Below are positions 34,036 to 64,000 of a stretch of DNA of 64,000 nucleotides, piece after piece. Source of the stretch: Sipunculus nudus. Taxonomy: Eukaryota; Annelida; Sipuncula; Golfingiida; Sipunculidae. Positions within the stretch are counted from its first letter, which is position 1; the number at the start of each line of letters is the position of its first letter. Position numbers and translations under genes: made by a program. The notes under the pieces were generated by a model. The model was not told where the DNA came from and made no database searches. It saw only the letters and a program-made list of their open reading frames with translations. The stretch is from assembly GCA_026874595.1 (NCBI GenBank), contig CM049306.1, positions 86,020,142 to 86,084,141 on the forward strand, read 5' to 3'.

Positions 34036-37000
34036 TTATATGTTGGAATGGATTTTCAAATAGGTTTTTATTAAGCTGAGATGTGAACGGGAAAAGCTTT
34101 TTTAATTGACGCCATACATATTGGCCGTTTACTCATCAGTGAATAAAATCAGGTTAAAAAATAACAACTTAGTATGTAAAATAAATGTAAAATATATATC
34201 TTTTTGAGCTGAGATAAACAACGATGGCTGTATCTATGTGTAAAATTTCTATCTTTATTTCAGATCCCATTATGCCCACCAAGGCTTTTACAGTGATATA
34301 TTTCTCCTATACATTAAGTAATAGAGCATCGTTGGAATGAGTCATTGGCCACTCAAAATTAATGTATATGTGAAATTTTAATATGAAATTATAATAACAT
34401 GTTATTACACCAGCTCGTGCATTTGATAGCTTTCACAGCAGTATATGACTATGAATAAGGTTACTGACAAACATAGGCCATTAAGACTAAAACCTTCCGC
34501 TAAGGAAATTATGTTGTATGTTAGTTTGTTTGTCTATCGGCAAGTTATCGTTGTTCCGTCCTTTTGAAGAGGAATGAATCTATCATGTTCATGTTTTTGT
34601 TTGGTGCTGATCCGGATAAAGAGAAGTGTCCAGTAGAAATGTATTAAATCGGCAAGTGCTATTCTAATCGCTTTGTTTTTTTTACATCAGCATGTGAAAG
34701 TTTAAATGAAAACATACTTGGGGACATACTTCAGGAAACGTATTTTGTTGTACAGTAAATATTTGAATAATAATCAATACTTTACTTATACTCGCTTTTA
34801 TGATATAGTGTGTGGTAATTAAAATATTAAAATATTATATATAATTAAAATATTAAAATTAACATAAGTTCATGTTACCTTTGTGGGTGCATAACCTGCC
34901 TAATTTATATAGGTGTAAGTGCAGAGAAGAGCCCGAAGCCGTGTTGGCCAAACGAATGTGGCTGGCTTGGACAAAAGGACGGCTGACTGAAGTAGTAAGC
35001 CGAGTTTCGTGGTTCGACTCAGCTTGCAAAATGTCGGGTGGCTTAAACTGACCCAGTCTCTACAATCGACCTTTTACCTTACGGTAAAGAACTCTCTGAC
35101 ACCATGCAGTGGGTCGTCGGACTACTTATCGGTCTCGGTAAACTGGCAACGAGTCTCGCCTATCGTAAACAACATGGTTGCGCCCATATAAGCGGACTAT
35201 CAGCTTGAGCGGTTGTACGAAATATAGCACACAAAGGTGGAATTGTTGTTTTAAATCCAAACTCGCCATTTTCTTCGCCACCGCAGCAGTTCACTGAAAA
35301 GGACGTATGATGAATCATGTAATCACAGCATCTCTGATTATCGCTCATTTGTCAGGTGTTTTTGTTTACATTTTGTTTTATACAGACATGTCACGTACCA
35401 CATGAACGTGTCACCACACGATACTATCTTATAATTATTTTCACCTGTACAAATAAACAGTAGCTAAACTGTGCATGAGTCCCGGAGATAAGATATATAG
35501 TAAATAAACTTTCAGACGAACAGAGGAACAATATATTTGAATTGTCAGAGACAAATCACAAAAGATAGAAAAAATATAGATTACAATAAACAATTATTCA
35601 TAGGGCACTAACGTTAAACGACTGGCTGTAAAAAAGCAAAATAGCAGAGAGAGCGAGCTATGTCCTTTATGATATGTACAAAAGTAAAGGTTTGAACATT
35701 TTTATTCAAATGTGAAATTAGAAAAAACTATGGGAAGGAAGGTTAAGCATGTAAATCATTCCTTTTAATACAGGGATGGTGGAATATACTGATAATGTCA
35801 TATTGGGGATTACAAAAGAACACACTTCAAGGAAAATAGAAATTATTGTATTATTAATGGGGAAAAAGCAGATGTTTATCTGTTTATTTTGCAATATATT
35901 CATGACTTTTTTCAAACACTGAAAAATACTTTGATATTTAGAGAACAATTACAGGAAAACACGACAGTTTATAAAAAAAATTAACAAAAAGGCAAAAATT
36001 TTCTAACTTTGATTTGATTTTAAAAAAAATTGATCACAATTTCAATTAAATATATACTAACATGCTCATACTTGTATTTGTGTTATTATGTGATGTTTGA
36101 TATTTGTTTTGTGTATTTGTTTGTTCTTATTGTTTTGTAAATGTTCAAACTAGTATAATAAATAGTATATAAAAAATGTGCTCGTGCTAATTTAGTCACT
36201 GCATTTTGACTTGCGACATCCTACGTTCAACATCCGGATATAAGTCTGTAAAAATGAAGTTCGTGAATTAAAGCATTTATTATGCATGGTAGAATTGTAA
36301 AAACACGAACATATCTGCAGCGATTGGACCCGCAGGCACGGAGAAGACGCCGGGATCCCGAGGGCAAGCCACGTCGTTATTCGTATATCAGGTAGGATTA
36401 TAAATTCATTCTTGGTTATGTAGTGCATATGAAGACGTTTCTCTCTTATGACAGAGTCTATACTCCTAGTCAACTGAAGCACACTTTGTAGACACTCTTG
36501 CCTTGAATCAACCGTGGAAACACATATACAAATCTTTCATGTCTTCTATATGTATCCAGCTGCTGCGATCTTTTCCATTCTGATATGACGTGCACAAAGA
36601 TTGTGAAGTTAAACAGCGTCTGAGAACATGGAGTAAGTCGGTATAGTGCGCGCCACCTATCTCCGTGTCACTTAATTTACTGTTTCCCAGAGACAGCATA
36701 TATATTAGGACCCTTCAGGACAGTTGGAGATCAACCGTTTCATGTCCAAATGTAATATTAGATTAAAAAGACACTTTTTCATCGCTTTAATTTTTGGCAT
36801 GATTTACTTATATGTAAATTTCAGAGAATTCCCGTTTATAAATCCTTCCTTCGTAGGACGGAGATTCTTATAGGGGGTGATGTGTTTATATCTATACTCA
36901 TATTTTGGTAAAACTTTTTTTAAGAATGGTCCTACTTGGTCCCCCAAGTACAAAACCGTTTCAATTTTTTTTTTTTAATACGCCATTTTTTGTTTGCGCT

Positions 37001-44790: not shown

Positions 44791-44879
44791 TTTTTATGCC
44801 CCCGCCACAAAGTGACAAAAGTAACAAAGCCACGTCATTCCGTCCTTCCGTCCTTCCGTCCTTCCGAAATAAAACAGTT
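44791..44879 (+). mobile_element. Transposon-like left flank of the satellite array
   Basis: TTTTATGCCCCCGCCACAAA followed by ACGTCATTCCGTCC and CCTTCCGTCCTTCCG repeats runs straight into the first satellite monomer. From memory this arrangement (a TATGCCCCCGCC start, a TCCGTCC microsatellite, then a tandem of about 180-190 bp) marks a family of bivalve elements with internal minisatellites. The matching right terminus lies outside the window, if it exists. Confidence 0.45.
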
Positions 44880-47377
44880 GTACAGACATTTTTTTCGCAA
44901 TGCCTGCAGATATTGGCCTGATTTTTGGTGTGTGGGCAGGTAATGACCAGTTACAGATCGAGTTCGCGTTTCGTCCCGGTAGACCTACTTTTGACTGATT
45001 TACAGCTCCTAAACTTAGAAAATTTCATGAAAAATAGAAATTTTTATGACAAATACACATGTACGGACTTTTTTTCGCAGTGCCTGCAGATATTGGCCTG
45101 ATTTTTGGTGTGTCGGCAGATAATGACCAGTTACAGATCAAGTTCGCGTTTCGTCCCAGTTGACCTACTTTTGACGGTTTTACGGCTCCTTAACTTAGAA
45201 AATTTCATGAAAAATATAAATTTTCATGACAAATACACAAGTACGGACTTATTTTCGCAATGCCTGCAGATATTGGCCTGATTTTTGGTGTGTCGGCAGA
45301 TAATGACCAGTTACAGATCAAGTTCGCGTTTCGTCCCAGTTGACCTACTTTTGACGGTTTTACGGCTCCTTAACTTAGAAAATTTCATGAAAAATATAAA
45401 TTTTCATGACAAATACACATGTACGGACTTATTTTCGCAATGCCTGCAGATATTGGCCTGATTTTTGGTTTGTGGGCAGATAATGACCACTTACAGATCG
45501 AGTTCGCGTTTCCTCCCCGTTGACCTACTTTTGACCATTTTACGGCTCCTAAACTTAGAAAATTTCATGAAAAATAGAAATTTTCTTGACAAATACACAT
45601 GTACGGACTTTTTTTCGCAGTGCCTGCAGATATTGGCCTGATTTTTTGTGTGTAGGCAGATAATGACCAGTTACAGATCGAGTTCGCGTTTCGTCCCAGT
45701 TGACCTACTTTTGACGGTTTTACGGCTCCTTAACTTAGAAAATTTCATGAAAAATATAAATTTTCATGACAAATACACATGTACGGTTTTATTTTCGCAA
45801 TGCCTGCAAATATTGGCCTGATTTTTTGTGTGTGGGCAGATAATGACCACTTACAGATTGAGTTCGCGTTTCGTCCCGGTTGACATACTTTTGACCATTT
45901 TACGGCTCCTGAAGATAGAAAATTTCATGAGAATATAAATTTTCATGACAAATATACATGTACGGACTTTTTTTCGCAATGCCTGCAGATATTGGCCTGA
46001 TTTTTGGTGTGTCGGCAGATAATGACCAGTTACAGATCAAGTTTGCGTTTCATCCCAGTTGACCTACTTTTGACTGTTTTACGGTGGTCTAACATAGAAA
46101 TTTTCATGACAAGTGCACATGTACGGACTTTTTTCGCAGTGCCTGCAGATACGGGCTTGATTTTTAGTGTGTACACAGATAATGACCAGCTACAGATCAA
46201 GTTCTTGTTTTGTCTCAGTTGACCTACTTTTGACCATTTGACTGCTCCTGAACATAGAAAGTTTCATGAAAAATAGGAATTTTTATGACAAATACACATG
46301 TACGGACTTTTTTTCGCAGTGCCTGCAGATATTTGCCTGATTTTTGGAGTGTGGGCAGATAATGACCAGTTACAGATCAAGTTCGCGTTTCGTCCCAGTT
46401 GACCTACTTTTGACGGTTTTACGGCTCCTTAACTTAGAAAATTTCATGAAAAATATAAATTTTCATGACAAATACACATGTACGGACTTATTTTCGCAAT
46501 GCCTGCAGATATTGGCCTGATTTTTGGTTTGTGGGCAGATAATGACCACTTACAGATCGAGTTCGCGTTTCCTCCCCGTTGACCTACTTTTGACCATTTT
46601 ACGGCTCCTAAACTTAGAAAATTTCATGAAAAATAGAAAGTTTCTTGACAAATATACATGTACGGACTTTTTTTTTTAAAATACCTGCAAATATTGGCCT
46701 GATTTTTTGTGTGTGGGCAGATAATGACCACTTACAGATTGAGTTCGCGTTTCGTCCCGGTTGACATACTTTTGACCATTTTACGGCTCCTGAAGATAGA
46801 AAATTTCATGAGAATATAAATTTGCATGACAAATATACATGTACGGACTTTTTTTCGCAATGCCTGCAGATATTGGCCTGATTTTTGGTGTGTGGGCAGA
46901 TAATGACCAGTTACAGATCAAGTTCGCGTTTCATCCCAGTTGACCTACTTTTGACTGTTTTACGGCTCCTGAAGATAGAAAATTTCATGAGAATATAAAT
47001 TTTCATGACAAATACACATGTACGGACTTATTTTCGCAATGCCTGCAGATATTGGCCTGATTTTTGGTGTGTCGGCAGATAATGACCAGTTACAGATCAA
47101 GTTCGCGTTTTATCCCAGTTGACCTACTTTTGACTATTTTACGGCTCCTGAAGATAGAAAATTTCATGAGAATATAAATTTTCATGACAAATACACATGT
47201 ACGGACTTATTTTCGCAATGCCTGCAGATATTGGCCTGATTTTTTGTGTGTGGGCAGATAATGACCACTTACAGATTGAGTTCGCGTTTCGTCCCGGTTG
47301 ACCTACTTTTGACTGTTTTACGGCTCCTGAAGATAGAAAATTTCATGAGAATATAAATTTTCATGACAAATACACAT
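44880..47377 (+). repeat. Simple, more diverged left part of the array
   Basis: About 14 monomers, mostly 179-181 bp, with one 161-bp unit (45960-46120). Neighbouring units differ at scattered sites, and the TACCAAC-type units that mark the higher-order blocks are absent until 47378. Diverged edges and homogeneous centres are expected for satellites maintained by unequal exchange. Confidence 0.7.
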
Positions 47378-49439
47378 GTACCAACTTTTTTTTGCAATAC
47401 CTGCAGATATTGGCCTGATTTTTTGTGTGTGGGCAGATAATGACCAGTTACAGATCGAGTTCATGTTTTGTCCCAGTTGACCTACTTTTGACCGTTTCAC
47501 GGTGGTCTAACATAGAAATTTTCATGACGAGTGCACATGTACGGACTTTTTTTCGCAGTGCCTGCAGATGCGGGCTCGATTTTTGGTGTGTACACAGATA
47601 ATGACTAGTTACAGATCAAGTTCTTGTTTTGTCTCAGTTGACCTACTTTTGACCATTTGACTGCTCCTGAACATAGAAAGTTTCATGAAAAATAGAAATT
47701 TTTATGACAAATACACATGTACGGACTTTTTTTCGCAGTGCCTGCAGGTATTGGCCTGATTTTTGGTGTGTGGGCAGATAATGACCAGTTACAGATCAAG
47801 TTCGCGTTTCGTCCCAGTTGACCTACTTTTGACGGTTTTACGGCTCCTTAACTTAGAAAATTTCATGAAAAATATAAATTTTCATGACAAATACACATGT
47901 ACGGACTTTTTTTTTTAAAATACCTGCAAATATTGGCCTGATTTTTTGTGTGTCGGCAGATAATGACCACTTACAGATTGAGTTTGCGTTTCGTCCCGGT
48001 TGACCTACTTTTGACTGTTTTACGGCTCCTGAAGATAGAAAATTTCATGAGAATATAAATTTTCATGACAAATACACATGTACCAACTTTTTTTTGCAAT
48101 ACCTGCAGATATTGGCCTCATTTTTGGTGTGTGGGCAGATAATGACCAGTTACAGATCGAGTTCATGTTTTGTCCCAGTTGACCTACTTTTGACCGTTTC
48201 ACGGTGGTCTAACATAGAAATTTTCATGACAAGTGCACATGTACGGACTTTTTTCGCAATGCCTGCAGATACGGGCTTGATTTTTGGTGTGTACGCAGAT
48301 AATGACCAGTTACAGATCAAGTTCTTGTTTTGTCTCAGTTGACCTACTTTTGACCATTTGACTGCTTCTGAACATAGAAAGTTTCATGAAAAATAGAAAT
48401 TTTCATAACAAATGCATATGTACCAACTTTTTTTCCTCAATGCCTGCAGATACCACCCTGATTTTTTATGTGTGGGCAGATAATGACCAGTTACAGATCA
48501 AGTTCGCGTTTCGTCCCAGTTGACCTACTTTTGACGGTTTTACGGCTCCTTAACTTAGAAAATTTCATGAAAAATATAAATTTTCATGACAAATACACAT
48601 GTACGGACTTATTTTCGCAATGCCTGCAGATATTGGCCTGATTTTTGGTTTGTGGGCAGATAATGACCACTTACAGATCGAGTTCGCGTTTCCTCCCCGT
48701 TGACCTACTTTTGACCATTTTACGGCTCCTAAATTAGAAAATTTCATGAAAAATAGAAAGTTTCTTGACAAATATACATGTACGGACTTTTTTTTAAAAA
48801 TACCTGCAAATATTGGCCTGATTTTTTGTGTGTGGGCAGATAATGACCACTTACAGATTGAGTTCGCGTTTCGTCCCGGTTGACATAATTTTGACCATTT
48901 TACGGCTCCTGAAGATAGAAAATTTCATGAGAATATAAATTTTCATGACAAATATACATGTACGGACTTTTTTTCGCAATGCCTGCAGATATTGGCCTGA
49001 TTTTTGGTGTGTCGGCAGATAATGACCAGTTACAGATCAAGTTCGCGTTTCATCCCAGTTGACCTACTTTTGACTGTTTTACGGCTCCTGAAGATAGAAA
49101 ATTTCATGAGAATATAAATTTTCATGACAAATACACATGTACGGACTTATTTTCGCAATGCCTGCAGATATTGGCCTGATTTTTGGTGTGTCGGGAGATA
49201 ATGACCAGTTACAGATCAAGTTCGCGTTTTATCCCAGTTGACCTACTTTTGACTGTTTTACGGCTCCTGAAGATAGAAAATTTCATGAGAATATAAATTT
49301 TCATGACAAATACACATGTACGGACTTTTTTTTAAAAATACCTGCAAATATTGGCCTGATTTTTTGTGTGTGGGCAGATAATGACCACTTACAGATTGAG
49401 TTTGCGTTTCGTCCCGGTTGACATAATTTTGACCATTTT

Positions 49440-52400
49440 ACGACTCCTGAAGATAGAAAATTTCATGAGAATATAAATTTTCATGACAAATACACATGTA
49501 CCAACTTTTTTTTGCAATACCTGCAGATATTGGCCTCATTTTTGGTGTGTGGGCAGATAATGACCAGTTACAGATCGAGTTCATGTTTTGTCCCAGTTGA
49601 CCTACTTTTGACCGTTTCACGGTGGTCTAACATAGAAATTTTCATGACAAGTGCACATGTACGGACTTTTTTTCGCAATGCCTGCAGATACGGGCTTGAT
49701 TTTTGGTGTGTACGCAGATAATGACCAGTTACAGATCAAGTTCTTGTTTTGTCTCAGTTGACCTACTTTTGACCATTTGACTGCTCCTGAACATAGAAAG
49801 TTTCATGAAAAATAGAAATTTTCATAACAAATGCATATGTACCAACTTTTTTTCCTCAATGCCTGCAGATACCACCCTGATTTTTTATGTGTGGGCAGAT
49901 AATGACCGGTTACAGATCAAGTTCGCGTTTCGTCCCAGTTGACCTACTTTTGACGGTTTTACGGCTCCTTAACTTAGAAAATTTCATGAAAAATATAAAT
50001 TTTCATGACAAATACACATGTACGGACTTTTTTTTTTAAAATACCTGCAAATATTGGCCTGATTTTTTGTGTGTGGGCAGATAATGACCACTTACAGATT
50101 GAGTTTGCGTTTCGTCCCGGTTGACCTACTTTTGACTGTTTTACGGCTCCTGAAGATAGAAAATTTCATGAGAATATAAATTTTCATGACAAATACACAT
50201 GTACCAACTTTTTTTTGCAATACCTGCAGATATTGGCCTCATTTTTGGTGTGTGGGCAGATAATGACCAGTTACAGATCGAGTTCATGTTTTGTCCCAGT
50301 TGACCTACTTTTGACCGTTTCACGGTGGTCTAACATAGAAATTTTCATGACAAGTGCACATGTACGGACTTTTTTCGCAATGCCTGCAGATACGGGCTTG
50401 ATTTTTGGTGTGTACGCAGATAATGACCAGTTACAGATCAAGTTCTTGTTTTGTCTCAGTTGACCTACTTTTGACCATTTGACTGCTCCTGAACATAGAA
50501 AGTTTCATGAAAAATAGAAATTTTCATAACAAATGCATATGTACCAACTTTTTTTCCTCAATGCCTGCAGATACCACCCTGATTTTTTATGTGTGGGCAG
50601 ATAATGACCAGTTACAGATCAAGTTCGCGTTTCGTCCCAGTTGACCTACTTTTGACGGTTTTACGGCTCCTTAACTTAGAAAATTTCATGAAAAATATAA
50701 ATTTTCATGACAAATACACATGTACGGACTTATTTTCGCAATGCCTGCAGATATTGGCCTGATTTTTGGTTTGTGGGCAGATAATGACCACTTACAGATC
50801 GAGTTCGCGTTTCCTCCCCGTTGATCTACTTTTGACCATTTTACGGCTCCTAAACTTAGAAAATTTCATGAAAAATAGAAAGTTTCTTGACAAATATACA
50901 TGTACGGACTTTTTTTTAAAAATACCTGCAAATATTGGCCTGATTTTTTGTGTGTGGGCAGATAATGACCACTTACAGATTGAGTTCGCGTTTCGTCCCG
51001 GTTGACATACTTTTGACCATTTTACGGCTCCTGAAGATAGAAAATTTCATGAGAATATAAATTTTCATGACAAATATACATGTACGGACTTTTTTTCGCA
51101 ATGCCTGCAGATATTGGCCTGATTTTTGGTGTGTCGGCAGATAATGACCAGTTACAGATCAAGTTCGCGTTTCATCCCAGTTGACCTACTTTTGATTGTT
51201 TTACGGCTCCTGAAGATAGAAAATTTCATGAGAATATAAATTTTCATGACAAATACACATGTACGGACTTATTTTTGCAATGCCTGCAAATATTGGCCTG
51301 ATTTTTTGTGTGTGGACAGATAATGACCACTTACAGATTGAGTTTGCGTTTCGTCCCGGTTGACCTACTTTTGACTGTTTTACGGCTCCTGAAGATAGAA
51401 AATTTCATGAGAATATAAATTTTCATGACAAATACACATGTACCAACTTTTTTTTGCAATACCTGCAGATATTGGCCTCATTTTTGGTGTGTGGGCAGAT
51501 AATGACCAGTTACAGATCGAGTTCATGTTTTGTCCCAGTTGACCTACTTTTGACCGTTTCACGGTGGTCTAACATAGAAATTTTCATGACGAGTGCACAT
51601 GTACGGACTTTTTTTCGCAATGCCTGCAGATACGGGCTTGATTTTTGGTGTGTACGCAGATAATGACCAGTTACAGATCAAGTTCTTGTTTTGTCTCAGT
51701 TGACCTACTTTTGACCATTTGACTGCTCCTGAACATAGAAAGTTTCATGAAAAATAGAAATTTTCATAACAAATGCATATGTACCAACTTTTTTTCCTCA
51801 ATGCCTGCAGATACCACCCTGATTTTTTATGTGTGGGCAGATAATGACCAGTTACAGATCAAGTTCGCGTTTCGTCCCAGTTGACCTACTTTTGACGGTT
51901 TTACGGCTCCTTAACTTAGAAAATTTCATGAAAAATATAAATTTTCATGACAAATACACATGTACGGACTTTTTTTTTTAAAATACCTGCAAATATTGGC
52001 CTGATTTTTTGTGTGTGGGCAGATAATGACCACTTACAGATTGAGTTTGCGTTTCGTCCCGGTTGACCTACTTTTGACTGTTTTACGGCTCCTGAAGATA
52101 GAAAATTTCATGAGAATATAAATTTTCATGACAAATACACATGTACCAACTTTTTTTTGCAATACCTGCAGATATTGGCCTCATTTTTGGTGTGTGGGCA
52201 GATAATGACCAGTTACAGATCGAGTTCATGTTTTGTCCCAGTTGACCTACTTTTGACCGTTTCACGGTGGTCTAACATAGAAATTTTCATGACAAGTGCA
52301 CATGTACGGACTTTTTTCGCAATGCCTGCAGATACGGGCTTGATTTTTGGTGTGTACGCAGATAATGACCAGTTACAGATCAAGTTCTTGTTTTGTCTCA

Positions 52401-53903
52401 GTTGACCTACTTTTGACCATTTGACTGCTCCTGAACATAGAAAGTTTCATGAAAAATAGAAATTTTCATAACAAATGCATATGTACCAACTTTTTTTCCT
52501 CAATGCCTGCAGATACCACCCTGATTTTTTATGTGTGGGCAGATAATGACCAGTTACAGATCAAGTTCGCGTTTCGTCCCAGTTGACCTACTTTTGACGG
52601 TTTTACGGCTCCTTAACTTAGAAAATTTCATGAAAAATATAAATTTTCATGACAAATACACATGTACGGACTTATTTTCGCAATGCCTGCAGATATTGGC
52701 CTGATTTTTGGTTTGTGGGCAGATAATGACCACTTACAGATCGAGTTCGCGTTTCCTCCCCGTTGATCTACTTTTGACCATTTTACGGCTCCTAAACTTA
52801 GAAAATTTCATGAAAAATAGAAAGTTTCTTGACAAATATACATGTACGGACTTTTTTTTAAAAATACCTGCAAATATTGGCCTGATTTTTTGTGTGTGGG
52901 CAGATAATGACCACTTACAGATTGAGTTCGCGTTTCGTCCCGGTTGACATACTTTTGACCATTTTACGGCTCCTGAAGATAGAAAATTTCATGAGAATAT
53001 AAATTTTCATGACAAATATACATGTACGGACTTTTTTTCGCAATGCCTGCAGATATTGGCCTGATTTTTGGTGTGTCGGCAGATAATGACCAGTTACAGA
53101 TCAAGTTCGCGTTTCATCCCAGTTGACCTACTTTTGATTGTTTTACGGCTCCTGAAGATAGAAAATTTCATGAGAATATAAATTTTCATGACAAATACAC
53201 ATGTACGGACTTATTTTTGCAATGCCTGCAAATATTGGCCTGATTTTTTGTGTGTGGACAGATAATGACCACTTACAGATTGAGTTTGCGTTTCGTCCCG
53301 GTTGACCTACTTTTGACTGTTTTACGGCTCCTGAAGATAGAAAATTTCATGAGAATATAAATTTTCATGACAAATACACATGTACCAACTTTTTTTTGCA
53401 ATACCTGCAGATATTGGCCTCATTTTTGGTGTGTGGGCAGATAATGACCAGTTACAGATCGAGTTCATGTTTTGTCCCAGTTGACCTACTTTTGACCGTT
53501 TCACGGTGGTCTAACATAGAAATTTTCATGACAAGTGCACATGTACGGACTTTTTTTCGCAATGCCTGCAGATACGGGCTTGATTTTTGGTGTGTACGCA
53601 GATAATGACCAGTTACAGATCAAGTTCTTGTTTTGTCTCAGTTGACCTACTTTTGACCATTTGACTGCTCCTGAACATAGAAAGTTTCATGAAAAATAGA
53701 AATTTTCATAACAAATGCATATGTACCAACTTTTTTTCCTCAATGCCTGCAGATACCACCCTGATTTTTTATGTGTGGGCAGATAATGACCAGTTACAGA
53801 TCAAGTTCGCGTTTCGTCCCAGTTGACCTACTTTTGACGGTTTTACGGCTCCTTAACTTAGAAAATTTCATGAAAAATATAAATTTTCATGACAAATACA
53901 CAT
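49440..53903 (+). repeat. Higher-order repeat, 1942 bp (11 monomers)
   Basis: TACCAAC units at 49498, 50201, 51440, 52143 and 53382 alternate in spacing 703, 1239, 703, 1239, so the pattern repeats every 1942 bp as a 4-monomer plus a 7-monomer block. Copies at this offset are nearly identical. For example, 49651 and 51593 differ by one base in about 40. The register breaks after 53903, where the next monomer is of a different subtype. Confidence 0.85.
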
Positions 53904-53947
53904 GTACGGACTTATTTTCGCAATGCCTGCAGATATTGGCCTGATTT

Positions 53948-55606
53948 TTGGTTTGTGGGCAGATAATGACCACTTACAGATCGAGTTCGCGTTTCCTCCC
54001 CGTTGACCTACTTTTGACCATTTTACGGCTCCTAAACTTAGAAAATTTCATGAAAAATAGAAAGTTTCTTGACAAATATACATGTACGGACTTTTTTTTT
54101 AAAATACCTGCAAATATTGGCCTGATTTTTTGTGTGTGGGCAGATAATGACAACTTACAGATTGAGTTCGCGTTTCGTCCCGGTTGACATACTTTTGACC
54201 ATTTTACGGCTCCTGAAGATAGAAAATGTCATGAGAATATAAATTTTCATGACAAATATACATGTACGGACTTTTTTTTCGCAATGCCTGCAAATATTGG
54301 CCTGATTTTTTGTGTGTGGGCAGATAATGACCACTTACAGATTGAGTTCGCGTTTCGTCCCGGTTGACATACTTTTGACCATTTTACGGCTCCTGAAGAT
54401 AGAAAATTTCATGAGAATATAAATTTTCATGACAAATATACATGTACGGACTTTTTTTCGCAATGCCTGCAGATATTGGCCTGATTTTTTATGTGTCGGC
54501 AGATAATGACCACTTACAGATCAAGTTCGCGTTTCATCCCAGTTGACCTACTTTTGACTGTTTTACGGCTCCTGAAGATAGAAAATTTCATGAGAATATA
54601 AATTTTCATGACAAATACACATGTACGGACTTATTTTCGCAATGCCTGCAAATATTGGCCTGATTTTTTGTGTGTGGGCAGATAATGACCACTTACAGAT
54701 TGAGTTTGCGTTTCGTCCCGGTTGACCTACTTTTGACTGTTTTACGGCTCCTGAAGATAGAAAATTTCATGAGAATATAAATTTTCATGACAAATACACA
54801 TGTACCAACTTTTTTTGCAATACCTGCAGATATTGGCCTCATTTTTGGTGTGTGGGCAGATAATGACCAGTTACAGATCGAGTTCATGTTTTGTCCCAGT
54901 TGACCTACTTTTGACCGTTTCACGGTGGTTTAGCATAGAAATTTTCATGACAAGTGCACATGTACGGACTTTTTTTTGCAATGCCTGCAGATACGGGCTT
55001 GATTTTTGGTGTGTACGCAGATAATGACCAGTTACAGATCAAGTTCTTGTTTTGTCTCAGTTGACCTACTTTTGAACATTTGACTGCTCCTGAACATAGA
55101 AAGTTTCATGAAAAATAGAAATTTTCATAACAAATGCATATGTACCAACTTTTTTTCCTCAATGCCTGCAGATACCACCCTGATTTTTTATGTGTGGGCA
55201 GATAATGACCAGTTACAGATCAAGTTCGCGTTTCGTCCCAGTTGACCTACTTTTGACGGTTTTACGGCTCCTTAACTTAGAAAATTTCATGAAAAATATA
55301 AATTTTCATGACAAATACACATGTACGGACTTATTTTCGCAATGCCTGCAGATATTGGCCTGATTTTTGGTTTGTGGGCAGATAATGACCACTTACAGAT
55401 CGAGTTCGCGTTTCCTCCCCGTTGACCTACTTTTGACCATTTTACGGCTCCTAAACTTAGAAAATTTCATGAAAAATAGAAAGTTTCTTGACAAATATAC
55501 ATGTACGGACTTTTTTTTAAAAATACCTGCAAATATTGGCCTGATTTTTTGTGTGTGGGCAGATAATGACCACTTACAGATTGAGTTCGCGTTTCGTCCC
55601 GGTTGA
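53948..55606 (+). repeat. Block duplicated 5677 bp downstream
   Basis: The order of monomer subtypes here recurs at 59625-61283, an offset of 5677 bp (about 32 monomers). Matching landmarks are 53948/59625, 54693/60370, 54800/60477 and 55367/61044. Single-base differences exist, such as GACAACTTAC versus GACCACTTAC near 54150. Confidence 0.75.
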
Positions 55607-56389
55607 CATACTTTTGACCATTTTACGGCTCCTGAAGATAGAAAATTTCATGAGAATATAAATTTTCATGACAAATATACATGTACGGTTTTTTTTTCGC
55701 AATGCCTGCAGATATTGGCCTGATTTTTGGTGTGTCGGCAGATAATGACCAGTTACAGATCAAGTTTGCGTTTCGTCCCGGTTGACCTACTTTTGACTGT
55801 TTTACGGCTCCTGAAGATAGAAAATTTCATGAGAATATAAATTTTGATGACAAATACACATGTACCAACTTTTTTTGCAATACCTGCAGATATTGGCCTC
55901 ATTTTTGGTGTGTGGGCAGATAATGACCAGTTACAGATCGAGTTCATGTTTTGTCCCAGTTGACCTACTTTTGACCGTTTCACGGTGGTCTAACATAGAA
56001 ATTTTCATGACAAGTGCACATGTACGGACTTTTTTTCGCAATGCCTGCAGATACGGGCTTGATTTTTGGTGTGTACGCAGAAAATGACCAGTTACAGATC
56101 AAGTTCTTGTTTTGTCTCAGTTGACCTACTTTTGACCATTTGACTGCTCCTGAACATAGAAAGTTTCATGAAAAATAGAAATTTTCATAACAAATGCATA
56201 TGTACCAACTTTTTTTCCTCAATGCCTGCAGATACCACCCTGATTTTTTATGTGTGGGCAGATAATGACCAGTTACAGATCAAGTTCGCGTTTCGTCCCA
56301 GTTGACCTACTTTTGACGGTTTTACGGCTCCTTAACTTAGAAAATTTCATGAAAAATATAAATTTTCATGACAAATACACATGTACGGA

Positions 56390-57550
56390 CTTATTTTCGC
56401 AATGCCTGCAGATATTGGCCTGATTTTTGGTGTGTCGGCAGATAATGACCAGTTACAGATCAAGTTCGCGTTTTATCCCAGTTGACCTACTTTTGACTGT
56501 TTTACGGCTCCTGAAGATAGAAAATTTCATGAGAATATAAATTTTCATGACAAATACACATGTACGGACTTATTTTCGCAATGCCTGCAAATATTGGCCT
56601 GATGTTTTGTGTGTGGGCAGATAATGACCACTTACAGATTGAGTTTGCGTTTCGTCCCGGTTGACCTACTTTTGACTGTTTTACGGCTCCTGAAGATAGA
56701 AAATTTCATGAGAATAAAAATTTTCATGACAAATACACATGTACCAACTTTTTTTTGCAATACCTGCAGATATTGGCCTCATTTTTGGTGTGTGGGCAGA
56801 TAATGACCAGTTACAGATCGAGTTCGCGTTTCGTCCCGGTTGACATACTTTTGACCATTTTACGGCTCCTGAAGATAGAAAATTTCATGAGAATATAAAT
56901 TTTCATGACAAATACACATGTACGGACTTATTTTCGCAATGCCTGCAAATATTGGCCTGATTTTTTGTGTTTGGGCAGATAATGACCACTTACAGATTGA
57001 GTTTGCGTTTCGTCCCGGTTGACCTACTTTTGACTGTTTTACGGCTCCTGAAGATAGAAAATTTCATGAGAATATATATTTTCATGACAAATACACATGT
57101 ACCAACTTTTTTTTTGCAATACCTGCAGATATTGGCCTCATTTTTGGTGTGTGGGCAGATAATGACCAGTTACAGATCGAGTTCATGTTTTGTCCCAGTT
57201 GACCTACTTTTGACCGTTTCACGGTGGTCTAACATAGAAATTTTCATGACAAGTGCACATGTACGGACTTTTTTTCGCAATGCCTGCAGATACGGGCTTG
57301 ATTTTTGGTGTGTACGCAGATAATGACCAGTTACAGATCAAGTTCTTGTTTTGTCTCAGTTGACCTACTTTTGACCATTTGACTGCTCCTGAACATAGAA
57401 AGTTTCATGAAAAATAGAAATTTTCATAACAAATGCATATGTACCAACTTTTTTTCCTCAATGCCTGCAGATACCACCCTGATTTTTTATGTGTGGGCAG
57501 ATAATGACCAGTTACAGATCAAATTCGCGTTTCGTCCCAGTTGACCTACT
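56390..57550 (+). repeat. Block duplicated 1960 bp downstream
   Basis: The rare variants GTGTTTGGGCAG (56971 and 58931) and ATCAAATTCGCG (57512 and 59472) recur at an offset of 1960 bp, again about 11 monomers but with a different internal order from the 1942-bp repeat. Confidence 0.7.
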
Positions 57551-58939
57551 TTTGACGGTTTTACGGCTCCTTAACTTAGAAAATTTCATGAAAAATATAA
57601 ATTTTCATGACAAATACACATGTACGGACTTATTTTCGCAATGCCTGCAGATATTGGCCTGATTTTTGGTTTGTGGGCAGATAATGACCACTTACAGATC
57701 GAGTTCGCGTTTCCTCCCCGTTGACCTACTTTTGACCATTTTACGGCTCCTAAACTTAGAAAATTTCATGAAAAATAGAAAGTTTCTTGACAAATATACA
57801 TGTACGGACTTTTTTTTTAAAATACCTGCAAATATTGGCCTGATTTTTTGTGTGTGGGCAGATAATGACCAGTTACAGATCGAGTTCATGTTTTGTCCCG
57901 GTTGACATACTTTTGACCATTTTACGGCTCCTGAAGATAGAAAATTTCATGAGAATATAAATTTTCATGACAAGTGCACATGTACGGACTTTTTTTCGCA
58001 ATGCCTGCAGATACGGGCTTGATTTTTGGTGTGTACGCAGATAATGACCAGTTACAGATCAAGTTCTTGTTTTGTCTCAGTTGACCTACTTTTGACCATT
58101 TGACTGCTCCTGAACATAGAAAGTTTCATGAAAAATAGAAATTTTCATAACAAATGCATATGTACCAACTTTTTTTCCTCAATGCCTGCAGATACCACCC
58201 TGATTTTTTATGTGTGGGCAGATAATGACCAGTTACAGATCAAGTTCGCGTTTCGTCCCAGTTGACCTACTTTTGACGGTTTTACGGCTCCTTAACTTAG
58301 AAAATTTCATGAAAAATATAAATTTTCATGACAAATACACATGTACGGACTTATTTTCGCAATGCCTGCAGATATTGGCCTGATTTTTGGTGTGTCGGCA
58401 GATAATGACCAGTTACAGATCAAGTTCGCGTTTTATCCCAGTTGACCTACTTTTGACTGTTTTACGGCTCCTGAAGATAGAAAATTTCATGAGAATATAA
58501 ATTTTCATGACAAATACACATGTACGGACTTATTTTCGCAATGCCTGCAAATATTGGCCTGATTTTTTGTGTGTGGGCAGATAATGACCACTTACAGATT
58601 GAGTTTGCGTTTCGTCCCGGTTGACCTACTTTTGACTGTTTTACGGCTCCTGAAGATAGAAAATTTCATGAGAATATAAATTTTCATGACAAATACACAT
58701 GTACCAACTTTTTTTTGCAATACCTGCAGATATTGGCCTCATTTTTGGTGTGTGGGCAGATAATGACCAGTTACAGATCGAGTTCGCGTTTCGTCCCGGT
58801 TGACATACTTTTGACCATTTTACGGCTCCTGAAGATAGAAAATTTCATGAGAATATAAATTTTCATGACAAATACACATGTACGGACTTATTTTCGCAAT
58901 GCCTGCAAATATTGGCCTGATTTTTTGTGTTTGGGCAGA

Positions 58940-60560
58940 TAATGACCACTTACAGATTGAGTTTGCGTTTCGTCCCGGTTGACCTACTTTTGACTGTTTT
59001 ACGGCTCCTGAAGATAGAAAATTTCATGAGAATATAAATTTTCATGACAAATACACATGTACCAACTTTTTTTTGCAATACCTGCAGATATTGGCCTCAT
59101 TTTTGGTGTGTGGGCAGATAATGACCAGTTACAGATCGAGTTCATGTTTTGTCCCAGTTGACCTACTTTTGACCGTTTCACGGTGGTCTAACATAGAAAT
59201 TTTCATGACAAGTGCACATGTACGGATTTTTTTTCGCAATGCCTGCAGATACGGGCTTGATTTTTGGTGTGTACGCAGATAATGACCAGTTACAGATCAA
59301 GTTCTTGTTTTGTCTCAGTTGACCTACTTTTGACCATTTGACTGCTCCTGAACATAGAAAGTTTCATGAAAAATAGAAATTTTCATAACAAATGCATATG
59401 TACCAACTTTTTTTCCTCAATGCCTGCAGATACCACCCTGATTTTTTATGTGTGGGCAGATAATGACCAGTTACAAATCAAATTCGCGTTTCGTCCCAGT
59501 TGACCTACTTTTGACGGTTTTACGGCTCCTTAACTTAGAAAATTTCATGAAAAATATAAATTTTCATGACAAATACACATGTACGGACTTATTTTCGCAA
59601 TGCCTGCAGATATTGGCCTGATTTTTGGTTTGTGGGCAGATAATGACCACTTACAGATCGAGTTCGCGTTTCCTCCCCGTTGACCTACTTTTGACCATTT
59701 TACGGCTCCTAAACTTAGAAAATTTCATGAAAAATAGAAAGTTTCTTGACAAATATACATGTACGGACTTTTTTTTTTAAAATACCTGCAAATATTGGCC
59801 TGATTTTTTGTGTGTGGGCAGATAATGACCACTTACAGATTGAGTTCGCGTTTCGTCCCGGTTGACATACTTTTGACCATTTTACGGCTCCTGAAGATAG
59901 AAAATTTCATGAGAATATAAATTTTCATGACAAATATACATGTACGGACTTTTTTTCGCAATGCCTGCAAATATTGGCCTGATTTTTTGTGTGTGGGCAG
60001 ATAATGACCACTTACAGATTGAGTTCGCGTTTCGTCCCGGTTGACATACTTTTGACCATTTTACGGCTCCTGAAGATAGAAAATTTCATGAGAATATAAA
60101 TTTTCATGACAAATATACATGTACGGACTTTTTTTCGCAATGCCTGCAGATATTGGCCTGATTTTTGGTGTGTCGGCAGATAATGACCAGTTACAGATCA
60201 AGTTCGCGTTTCATCCCAGTTGACCTACTTTTGACTGTTTTACGGCTCCTGAAGATAGAAAATTTCATGAGAATATAAATTTTCATGACAAATACACATG
60301 TACGGACTTATTTTCGCAATGCCTGCAAATATTGGCCTGATTTTTTGTGTGTGGGCAGATAATGACCACTTACAGATTGAGTTTGCGTTTCGTCCCGGTT
60401 GACCTACTTTTGACTGTTTTACGGCTCCTGAAGATAGAAAATTTCATGAGAATATAAATTTTCATGACAAATACACATGTACCAACTTTTTTTGCAATAC
60501 CTGCAGATATTGGCCTCATTTTTGGTGTGTGGGCAGATAATGACCAGTTACAGATCGAGT
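58940..60560 (+). repeat. Block duplicated 2659 bp downstream
   Basis: Private variants TACGGATTTTTTTTCGC (59220 and 61879) and TTACAAATCAAATTCG (59471 and 62130) recur at an offset of 2659 bp (about 15 monomers), ending near 60560 and 63220. A further copy of the first part appears at 63436-64000, an offset of 4437 bp (25 monomers), so one segment is present at least three times. Confidence 0.75.
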
Positions 60561-63500
60561 TCATGTTTTGTCCCAGTTGACCTACTTTTGAACGTTTCAC
60601 GGTGGTCTAACATAGAAATTTTCATGACAAGTGCACATGTACGGACTTTTTTTCGCAATGCCTGCAGATACGGGCTTGATTTTTGGTGTGTACGCAGATA
60701 ATGACCAGTTACAGATCAAGTTCTTGTTTTGTCTCAGTTGACCTACTTTTGACCATTTGACTGCTCCTGAACATAGAAAGTTTCATGAAAAATAGAAATT
60801 TTCATAACAAATGCATATGTACCAACTTTTTTTCCTCAATGCCTGCAGATACCACCCTGATTTTTTATGTGTGGGCAGATAATGACCAGTTACAGATCAA
60901 GTTCGCGTTTCGTCCCAGTTGACCTACTTTTGACGGTTTTACGGCTCCTTAACTTAGAAAATTTCATGAAAAATATAAATTTTCATGACAAATACACATG
61001 TACGGACTTATTTTCGCAATGCCTGCAGATATTGGCCTGATTTTTGGTTTGTGGGCAGATAATGACCACTTACAGATCGAGTTCGCGTTTCCTCCCCGTT
61101 GACCTACTTTTGACCATTTTACGGCTCCTAAACTTAGAAAATTTCATGAAAAATAGAAAGTTTCTTGACAAATATACATGTACGGACTTTTTTTTAAAAA
61201 TACCTGCAAATATTGGCCTGATTTTTTGTGTGTGGGCAGATAATGACCACTTACAGATTGAGTTCGCGTTTCGTCCCGGTTGACATACTTTTGACCATTT
61301 TACGGCTCCTGAAGATAGAAAATTTCATGAGAATATAAATTTTCATGACAAATATACATGTACGGACTTTTTTTCGCAATGCCTGCAGATATTGGCCTGA
61401 TTTTTGGTGTGTCGGCAGATAATGACCAGTTACAGATCAAGTTCGCGTTTCATCCCAGTTGACCTACTTTTGATTGTTTTACGGCTCCTGAAGATAGAAA
61501 ATTTCATGAGAATATAAATTTTCATGACAAATACACATGTACGGACTTATTTTTGCAATGCCTGCAAATATTGGCCTGATTTTTTGTGTGTGGACAGATA
61601 ATGACCACTTACAGATTGAGTTTGCGTTTCGTCCCGGTTGACCTACTTTTGACTGTTTTACGGCTCCTGAAGATAGAAAATTTCATGAGAATATAAATTT
61701 TCATGACAAATACACATGTACCAACTTTTTTTTGCAATACCTGCAGATATTGGCCTCATTTTTGGTGTGTGGGCAGATAATGACCAGTTACAGATCGAGT
61801 TCATGTTTTGTCCCAGTTGACCTACTTTTGACCGTTTCACGGTGGTCTAACATAGAAATTTTCATGACAAGTGCACATGTACGGATTTTTTTTCGCAATG
61901 CCTGCAGATACGGGCTTGATTTTTGGTGTGTACGCAGATAATGACCAGTTACAGATCAAGTTCTTGTTTTGTCTCAGTTGACCTACTTTTGACCATTTGA
62001 CTGCTCCTGAACATAGAAAGTTTCATGAAAAATAGAAATTTTCATAACAAATGCATATGTACCAACTTTTTTTCCTCAATGCCTGCAGATACCACCCTGA
62101 TTTTTTATGTGTGGGCAGATAATGACCAGTTACAAATCAAATTCGCGTTTCGTCCCAGTTGACCTACTTTTGACGGTTTTACGGCTCCTTAACTTAGAAA
62201 ATTTCATGAAAAATATAAATTTTCATGACAAATACACATGTACGGACTTATTTTCGCAATGCCTGCAGATATTGGCCTGATTTTTGGTTTGTGGGCAGAT
62301 AATGACCACTTACAGATCGAGTTCGCGTTTCCTCCCCGTTGACCTACTTTTGACCATTTTACGGCTCCTAAACTTAGAAAATTTCATGAAAAATAGAAAG
62401 TTTCTTGACAAATATACATGTACGGACTTTTTTTTTTAAAATACCTGCAAATATTGGCCTGATTTTTTGTGTGTGGGCAGATAATGACCACTTACAGATT
62501 GAGTTCGCGTTTCGTCCCGGTTGACATACTTTTGACCATTTTACGGCTCCTGAAGATAGAAAATTTCATGAGAATATAAATTTTCATGACAAATATACAT
62601 GTACGGACTTTTTTTCGCAATGCCTGCAAATATTGGCCTGATTTTTTGTGTGTGGGCAGATAATGACCACTTACAGATTGAGTTCGCGTTTCGTCCCGGT
62701 TGACATACTTTTGACCATTTTACGGCTCCTGAAGATAGAAAATTTCATGAGAATATAAATTTTCATGACAAATATACATGTACGGACTTTTTTTCGCAAT
62801 GCCTGCAGATATTGGCCTGATTTTTGGTGTGTCGGCAGATAATGACCAGTTACAGATCAAGTTCGCGTTTCATCCCAGTTGACCTACTTTTGACTGTTTT
62901 ACGGCTCCTGAAGATAGAAAATTTCATGAGAATATAAATTTTCATGACAAATACACATGTACGGACTTATTTTCGCAATGCCTGCAAATATTGGCCTGAT
63001 TTTTTGTGTGTGGGCAGATAATGACCACTTACAGATTGAGTTTGCGTTTCGTCCCGGTTGACCTACTTTTGACTGTTTTACGGCTCCTGAAGATAGAAAA
63101 TTTCATGAGAATATAAATTTTCATGACAAATACACATGTACCAACTTTTTTTTGCAATACCTGCAGATATTGGCCTCATTTTTGGTGTGTGGGCAGATAA
63201 TGACCAGTTACAGATCGAGTTCGCGTTTCGTCCCGGTTGACATACTTTTGACCATTTTACGGCTCCTGAAGATAGAAAATTTCATGAGAATATAAATTTT
63301 CATGACAAATACACATGTACGGACTTATTTTCGCAATGCCTGCAAATATTGGCCTGATTTTTTGTGTTTGGGCAGATAATGACCACTTACAGATTGAGTT
63401 TGCGTTTCGTCCCGGTTGACCTACTTTTGACTGTTTTACGGCTCCTGAAGATAGAAAATTTCATGAGAATATAAATTTTCATGACAAATACACATGTACC

Positions 63501-64000
63501 AACTTTTTTTTGCAATACCTGCAGATATTGGCCTCATTTTTGGTGTGTGGGCAGATAATGACCAGTTACAGATCGAGTTCATGTTTTGTCCCAGTTGACC
63601 TACTTTTGACCGTTTCACGGTGGTCTAACATAGAAATTTTCATGACAAGTGCACATGTACGGATTTTTTTTCGCAATGCCTGCAGATACGGGCTTGATTT
63701 TTGGTGTGTACGCAGATAATGACCAGTTACAGATCAAGTTCTTGTTTTGTCTCAGTTGACCTACTTTTGACCATTTGACTGCTCCTGAACATAGAAAGTT
63801 TCATGAAAAATAGAAATTTTCATAACAAATGCATATGTACCAACTTTTTTTCCTCAATGCCTGCAGATACCACCCTGATTTTTTATGTGTGGGCAGATAA
63901 TGACCAGTTACAAATCAAATTCGCGTTTCGTCCCAGTTGACCTACTTTTGACGGTTTTACGGCTCCTTAACTTAGAAAATTTCATGAAAAATATAAATTT

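What the first reader, a model, noticed from the sequence alone, without database searches (positions are those of the whole stretch)
44880..64000. At least 19 kb of satellite with nested higher-order repeats in a probable bivalve genome
Seen directly: one uninterrupted head-to-tail array of a 180-bp monomer in which specific monomer variants recur at offsets of 1942, 1960, 2659, 4437 and 5677 bp. Established: higher-order repeats of 170-180 bp monomers are the classic state of primate centromeric alpha satellite. Inference: this may be a centromeric or heterochromatic satellite undergoing recent block amplification in a mollusc, where such organisation is less often described.
Basis: partly seen in the sequence, partly recalled or inferred. 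Interest (0 to 1): 0.8.

Follow-up and report, generated by a model that had tools for sequence, protein, structure and literature searches.

The report
Overgrown transposon core with higher-order repeats
The repeat block is real, but it is the swollen middle of one copy of a common mobile element: a short, ordered row of repeat units was duplicated in blocks until it looked like a small centromere-style satellite.

Summary
In detail: a ~180-bp tandem array starts at 44,879, fills the window to its end, and shows all five stated offsets. It is not a free satellite. It continues past the window and closes as one bounded 34.5-kb element (C1:86,064,933-86,099,439) with the ends of a non-autonomous Helentron (HINE): 5' subterminal repeat, CGTCCTTC microsatellite, 194 monomer anchors, 3' subterminal repeat, palindrome plus CTAGT. 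The exact 3' end occurs 1,885 times in the genome. Other copies are typically about 1.8 kb, with an ordered core ending, in the clearest cases, K-L-N-Q. The higher-order unit (8-mer plus 7-mer, 2,659 bp) is that core duplicated without its ends. The founding junction is visible: internal N monomers begin as the penultimate monomer and end as a left-side monomer. A 44-bp array variant occurs 77 times exactly, all here, so growth looks local. This copy has also lost its 5' hairpin. Nothing found points to a centromere. HINEs with satellite-like cores are known in oysters; the 194-anchor size and traceable higher-order structure are the new part. Best reading: in-place unequal exchange. Read-level proof of block order is missing.

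The parts
44792..64000 (+). Giant HINE-like element, left 19.2 kb of 34,507 bp; right end lies outside the window at C1:86,099,439 (window-equivalent 79,298). The first T's may belong to the target
   Evidence: ends defined by comparison with other copies
44796..44806 (+). 5' subterminal inverted repeat ATGCCCCCGCC, one copy only in the element; its inverted partner GGCGGGGGCAT lies once near the 3' end (element position 34,473)
   Evidence: shared left end
44815..44832 (+). Altered left segment where other copies have the inverted repeat closing a 5' hairpin; the surrounding 35-mer is unique in the assembly
   Evidence: fold -1.5 versus -13.2 kcal/mol in a normal copy, L013; 1 genome match at up to 2 mismatches
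44833..44866 (+). CGTCCTTC microsatellite of the left module
44879..64000 (+). Tandem core, 108 monomer anchors in the window and 194 in the whole element
44879..48337 (+). Left edge of the core, before the first N monomer: monomers more diverged from their nearest relatives than the interior
   Evidence: nearest-neighbour edits mean 3.05 for the first 20 monomers versus 0.19 for monomers 21-190; first N at 48,338
48338..64000 (+). Higher-order region: N-B-H-(O)-E-J-K-L units of 7 or 8 monomers (1,239 and 1,419 bp), commonly alternating as a 15-mer of 2,659 bp, with shorter and longer variants
49909..51590 (+). 1,682-bp segment repeated exactly 1,942 bp downstream
56605..61450 (+). First copy of the longest exact repeat (4,846 bp); second copy 16,848 bp downstream, outside the window

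Best explanation
It is a single copy of a non-autonomous Helentron-type element (HINE) whose central tandem repeats expanded in place. Shown: it has the family's two ends, once each; other copies are typically about 1.8 kb, and those examined carry a position-ordered core ending in the clearest cases K-L-N-Q; the higher-order unit is that ordered core without the ends; a junction lies inside the N monomer, where the penultimate monomer switches, in register, to the tail of a left-side monomer; a 44-bp array variant occurs exactly nowhere else. Inferred: after insertion, unequal exchange (sister-chromatid crossing-over, slippage, conversion or repair between misaligned monomers) joined monomer R2 to a left-side monomer, giving a tandem duplication of the core; further exchanges of 7-, 8- and 15-monomer blocks and one very long duplication (lag 16.8 kb) built 194 monomers. 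The copy has lost its 5' hairpin and probably can no longer transpose, so it is turning into a satellite. I infer no host function.
For: Ends and boundaries. Of 14 other loci fetched, 13 show the left end (up to 1 error), 13 the right palindrome (up to 4 errors) and 12 both. Exact 3' end 1,885 copies, exact 5' end 1,912, reversed-pattern controls 0. Of 88 exact 3' ends on C1 below 48.2 Mb, 44 pair with an exact 5' end within 60 kb; 42 of these 44 spans are 285-5,167 bp; median of all 44 is 1,840. Reciprocal empty sites of L019 and L017a without target duplication. T before and T after the element in 13 of 13 copies shown. Ordered core: same position in different elements 21.4 edits, different positions 36.9; 0 of 2,000 permutations reach it (11 of 14 elements). 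Type-to-position match L=R3, N=R2, Q=R1: nearest type is Q at R1 in 11 of 14 and N at R2 in 8 of 14; L013 reads C-B-C-B-K-L-N-Q. Junction: modal internal N against ten short R2 monomers; 24 of 25 internal N have the left-type TGACCA and 17 of 25 the exact left-type tail, the last N does not. Private variant 77 of 77. Unique left end. Edge more diverged than interior.
Against: No autonomous partner with these ends was found: two Helitron loci examined, of 143 matches, lack both ends within the fetched DNA. The exchange mechanism is inferred from products only. Block number and order rest on an assembly that I could not check with reads. The positional match is imperfect: R2 is G-type, not N-type, in L015, L016 and L019, and R1 is not Q-type in L023, L017a and L024; 8 of 25 internal N monomers do not carry the exact left-type tail. 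Only exact copies of the 44-bp variant were counted, so near variants elsewhere are not excluded.
Confidence: 0.84

Rival explanations
1. A centromeric or heterochromatic satellite of the classic alpha-satellite type.
For: 180-bp monomers and true higher-order structure. In C. gigas, Cg170 repeats lie both in Helitrons and at some centromeres (PMC7348941, passages).
Against: 34.5 kb only, bounded by transposon ends; a 44-bp array variant absent, as an exact match, from every other place; no CENP-B-like box above chance; the 15 listed Helitron_like_N matches on C1 all lie at 53-72 Mb while the array is at 86 Mb, which hints, no more, that a repeat-rich zone is elsewhere.
Confidence: 0.04
2. Rolling-circle read-through during transposition produced the tandem core, as proposed for centromeric plant Helitrons.
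For: HINEs are held to move by rolling circle, and tandem truncated Helitrons are described (PMC12628747, passages). That review also allows partial rolling-circle rounds that multiply internal sequences.
Against: Many arrays of that model have multiple 5' ends and one 3' end; here the 5' subterminal repeat, microsatellite, 3' subterminal repeat and palindrome occur once each. The junction is an in-register switch inside a monomer. Blocks of several sizes fit repeated exchange better.
Confidence: 0.12
3. Assembly artefact: a short array over-extended or scrambled by the assembler.
For: Exact repeats up to 4,846 bp are hard for short or noisy reads.
Against: Both flanks are non-array sequence; many blocks differ from one another; monomers are more diverged at the left edge than inside. 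A collapse would shorten, not lengthen, the array.
Confidence: 0.08

Closest known systems
Cg_HINE elements of Crassostrea gigas (Vojvoda Zeljko et al. 2020, PMC7492417; parts 1-3 of 7 of the text and passages seen)
   Same: Left module with subTIR, inverted repeat and (in several elements) GTCC-type microsatellite; central tandem repeats mostly of 140-180 bp; right module with subTIR and palindrome; T-rich insertion sites; no target duplication
   Different: There arrays mostly have up to 5 monomers, the longest 29.3, and arrays are called homogeneous; here cores are ordered by position and one copy has 194 anchors with higher-order units
CgiSat01/Cg170 arrays of C. gigas (PMC8268682, passages)
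   Same: Satellite linked to Helitron/Helentron elements, rarely in long arrays
   Different: Longest element-bound array reported there is 89 monomers; the longest free one is 232 monomers (about 40 kb) and holds an assembly gap; the words 'higher-order' and 'HORs' do not occur in its main text
Primate alpha satellite higher-order repeats (recalled, no paper seen)
   Same: Monomers of 170-180 bp, multi-monomer units copied with high identity, diverged edges and homogeneous interior
   Different: Alpha satellite is megabase-sized and centromeric; this is 34.5 kb inside a transposon copy

Membership tests
HINE (non-autonomous Helentron) | Subterminal inverted repeats in left and right modules | tested here: met
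   ATGCCCCCGCC at element position 5, GGCGGGGGCAT at 34,473, once each
HINE (non-autonomous Helentron) | Inverted repeat next to the 5' subTIR (5' hairpin) | tested here: not met
   Lost in the giant copy (-1.5 kcal/mol) but present in a normal copy (L013, -13.2 kcal/mol); the exact family 5' end, which holds it, has 1,912 copies. The family meets it; this copy reads as a damaged member, so I file the family, not this copy's competence
HINE (non-autonomous Helentron) | Microsatellite between left end and tandem repeats | tested here: met
   CGTCCTTC repeat 44,833-44,866
HINE (non-autonomous Helentron) | Palindrome near the 3' end | tested here: met
   GTGTCGTTCCGACAC folds as a hairpin
HINE (non-autonomous Helentron) | Insertion in T-rich sites without target duplication | tested here: met
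   Flanks of 13 copies including the giant; empty sites shown for two other copies, not for the giant copy itself
HINE (non-autonomous Helentron) | Mobilised by an autonomous Helentron with matching ends | tested here: inconclusive
   143 Helitron_like_N matches exist; two loci examined lack both ends
Centromeric satellite | Binds CENP-A / lies at the primary constriction | not testable with these tools
   needs ChIP or FISH
Higher-order repeat | Distinct monomer types recurring in fixed order as a larger unit | tested here: met

The most novel reading that the evidence does not exclude
This locus is a satellite caught at birth: higher-order structure arises without a centromere, because a transposon's core already holds position-specific monomers, so the first unequal exchange makes a multi-monomer unit at once. 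The founding junction, progenitor-like short elements and later block duplications can all be read in one assembly. Loss of the 5' hairpin may mark the switch from mobile element to immobile satellite.
Probability: 0.5. Interest if true: 0.6.

Novelty: new variant of a known kind. Interest (0 to 1): 0.45.

Why it matters
How higher-order satellites start is usually hidden, because old arrays have erased their origin. Here the ordered short copies, a founding-type junction and the expanded copy coexist, so the step from transposon core to higher-order satellite can be tested directly by comparing individuals and related species. It also warns that 180-bp higher-order arrays in such genomes need not mark centromeres.

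Tried and rejected
Centromere reading: rejected as above. CENP-B box (motif recalled): 0 exact matches on either strand; with one mismatch 1 and 0 on the two strands against means of 1.15 and 1.10 in 20 shuffles. Autonomous partner: L045+L046 and L047+L048 hold stop-to-stop frames of 2,235 and 2,229 aa and share 6.56 kb at 86% identity, but show neither element end; one 10-bp near match to the 3' subterminal repeat in the second is not at an end. Four of the 13 window frames listed were scanned and gave no Pfam match, and the window has no Rfam match. The haemocyanin domain search, meant to separate bivalve from gastropod, found nothing, but no control genome rang either, so it is weak. Two pairs of ends 14,374 and 47,872 bp apart probably join different elements; I did not fetch them, so other large elements are not excluded. 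Paper searches: Helitron + satellite DNA + bivalve + tandem repeats (26 papers, 20 listed); Helentron + higher-order repeat + satellite (3); Helitron + higher-order repeat + mollus (4); satellite DNA + higher-order + bivalve + monomer (13); DINE-TR1 + tandem repeats + satellite (17, 10 listed). No listed title describes higher-order repeats inside a HINE; most hits were seen as listings only (PMC10048060, which holds the phrase once, was not opened). In the papers opened by passages, 'higher-order' has 0 occurrences in PMC11136912, PMC8268682, PMC12628747 and PMC7348941, and 1, in the reference list, in PMC5139131. Only open-licence papers are held.

Limits of counts: one search scored 40 of 5,547 candidates; one search scored 150 of 195. 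The pattern searches for the two ends, the R2 motif and the 18-mer list only the first 100 places, all on C1, so size and cluster statistics come from the first part of C1 (below 48.2 and 65.7 Mb). The 14 short loci were chosen as best matches to a 361-bp query from this array, so they are biased towards relatives of the giant copy. In some searches one element was taken from L017 (it holds two) and the first array of L014; the left boundary of L018 and the right boundary of L024 were approximate. In one search, 11 of 14 were used; L017a, L020 and L021 were dropped for irregular monomer lengths. L024, which has no recognised right end, was kept, so its positions are shifted by one against my reading. 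One search aligned ten of the 14 short R2 monomers.

Full report
What is there. The window is C1:86,020,142-86,084,141 of a 1.43-Gb assembly in 153 contigs. TRF finds one array from 44,879 to the window's end. Fetching the next 20 kb shows that the element closes at C1:86,099,439. The whole is 34,507 bp long with 194 anchors, 193 complete monomers and 65 distinct monomer sequences.

The ends. The left border is TTTTATGCCCCCGCC and the right border GGCGGGGGCATTC, a GTGTCGTTCCGACAC palindrome and ATCTAGT. Fourteen other loci that match the array were fetched; 13 show the left end, 13 the right end and 12 both, with 5 to 21 monomer anchors each. The exact 32-bp 3' end occurs 1,885 times and the exact 44-bp 5' end 1,912 times, on both strands, with 0 for the reversed pattern. 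On C1 below 48.2 Mb, 44 of 88 exact 3' ends pair with an exact 5' end within 60 kb; 42 of the 44 spans are 285-5,167 bp, the other two (14,374 and 47,872 bp) probably join different elements but were not read. L019 and L017a sit in the same host repeat at different places and give each other's empty site, without target duplication. These are the features reported for HINEs in oysters (PMC7492417, parts 2 and 3).

The higher-order structure. Monomer types recur as N-B-H-E-J-K-L (7-mer, 6 times) and N-B-H-O-E-J-K-L (8-mer, 6 times) among 27 segments, the rest being variants; together they give the 2,659-bp 15-mer. 146 of 186 type 8-mers are repeated, against 0 in 500 shuffles. Exact repeats reach 4,846 bp at lag 16,848, so the last steps are recent on a mutational scale; I cannot give years.

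Where the unit came from. In the short elements the last monomers are position-specific: across 11 of the 14, same-position monomers differ by 21.4 edits and different-position monomers by 36.9, and none of 2,000 permutations reaches this. Giant type L matches position R3, N matches R2 and Q matches R1; taken element by element, the nearest type is Q at R1 in 11 of 14 and N at R2 in 8 of 14, with G instead in L015, L016 and L019. L013 reads C-B-C-B-K-L-N-Q. Q, the terminal type, occurs once in the giant array, at its very end, while L and N recur 25 and 26 times. The motif that marks R2 occurs 1,600 times in the genome and 27 times in the giant element; among the first 100 listed places (C1 below 65.7 Mb, so without the giant) no cluster holds more than 3. 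So the unit is the core of a normal element without its terminal monomer and without its ends.

The founding junction. The commonest internal N monomer (14 of 25 copies) matches R2 up to GTGGGCAGATAATGA and then carries the tail of the first left-side monomers; the last N, before Q, keeps the R2 tail. Over all internal N monomers, 24 of 25 have the left-type TGACCA and 17 of 25 the exact tail. This is an in-register switch between R2 and a left-side monomer, the expected product of unequal exchange. Smaller block repeats in L011, L015 and L020 suggest that the process is common in the family (inference).

Local growth. The 44-bp motif of types E, I, J, K, O and P occurs 77 times exactly in the genome, all in this array. 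The altered left end is unique at up to two mismatches. Monomers at the left edge are more diverged from their nearest relatives than those inside, as in known satellites (recalled). Together these say that growth probably took place here, after insertion.

What it is not. Nothing found supports a centromere: size, bounded ends, a private variant not shared with other chromosomes, and no CENP-B-like box above chance. No chromatin or cytological data could be consulted. The organism is consistent with a bivalve but not identified (one search is weak).

Novelty. HINEs with satellite-like cores, and the idea that such cores expand into satellites, are known (PMC7492417; PMC12628747, passages). 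The longest element-bound array in the passages I saw has 89 monomers (PMC8268682). A 194-anchor copy with a readable higher-order origin is a new variant of a known kind, as far as my searches go.

Noticed in passing
G000:C1:53.26-71.80 Mb: All 15 listed Helitron_like_N matches on C1 (110.9 Mb; some are pieces of one copy) lie between 53.26 and 71.80 Mb; some other contigs look clustered too, by eye only. A low-recombination or pericentromeric zone is a possible reason.
   Followed up: no
L028, L029, L031, L032, L036: Helitron-type proteins in stop-to-stop frames of 2,229-2,426 aa, so possibly intact autonomous Helitrons exist in this genome.
   Followed up: partly
L017, L019, L020, L023: Several copies have inserted into one host repeat with a motif like GGTGGCGCCACC, giving natural empty sites.
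   Followed up: partly
L011, L015, L020: Short elements with small internal block repeats, such as I-L-G twice in L015 and K-L-G followed by K-L-N in L011: incipient higher-order units.
   Followed up: partly
L014: A second monomer array and a second 3' end follow directly after the first element, a nested or tandem insertion.
   Followed up: no
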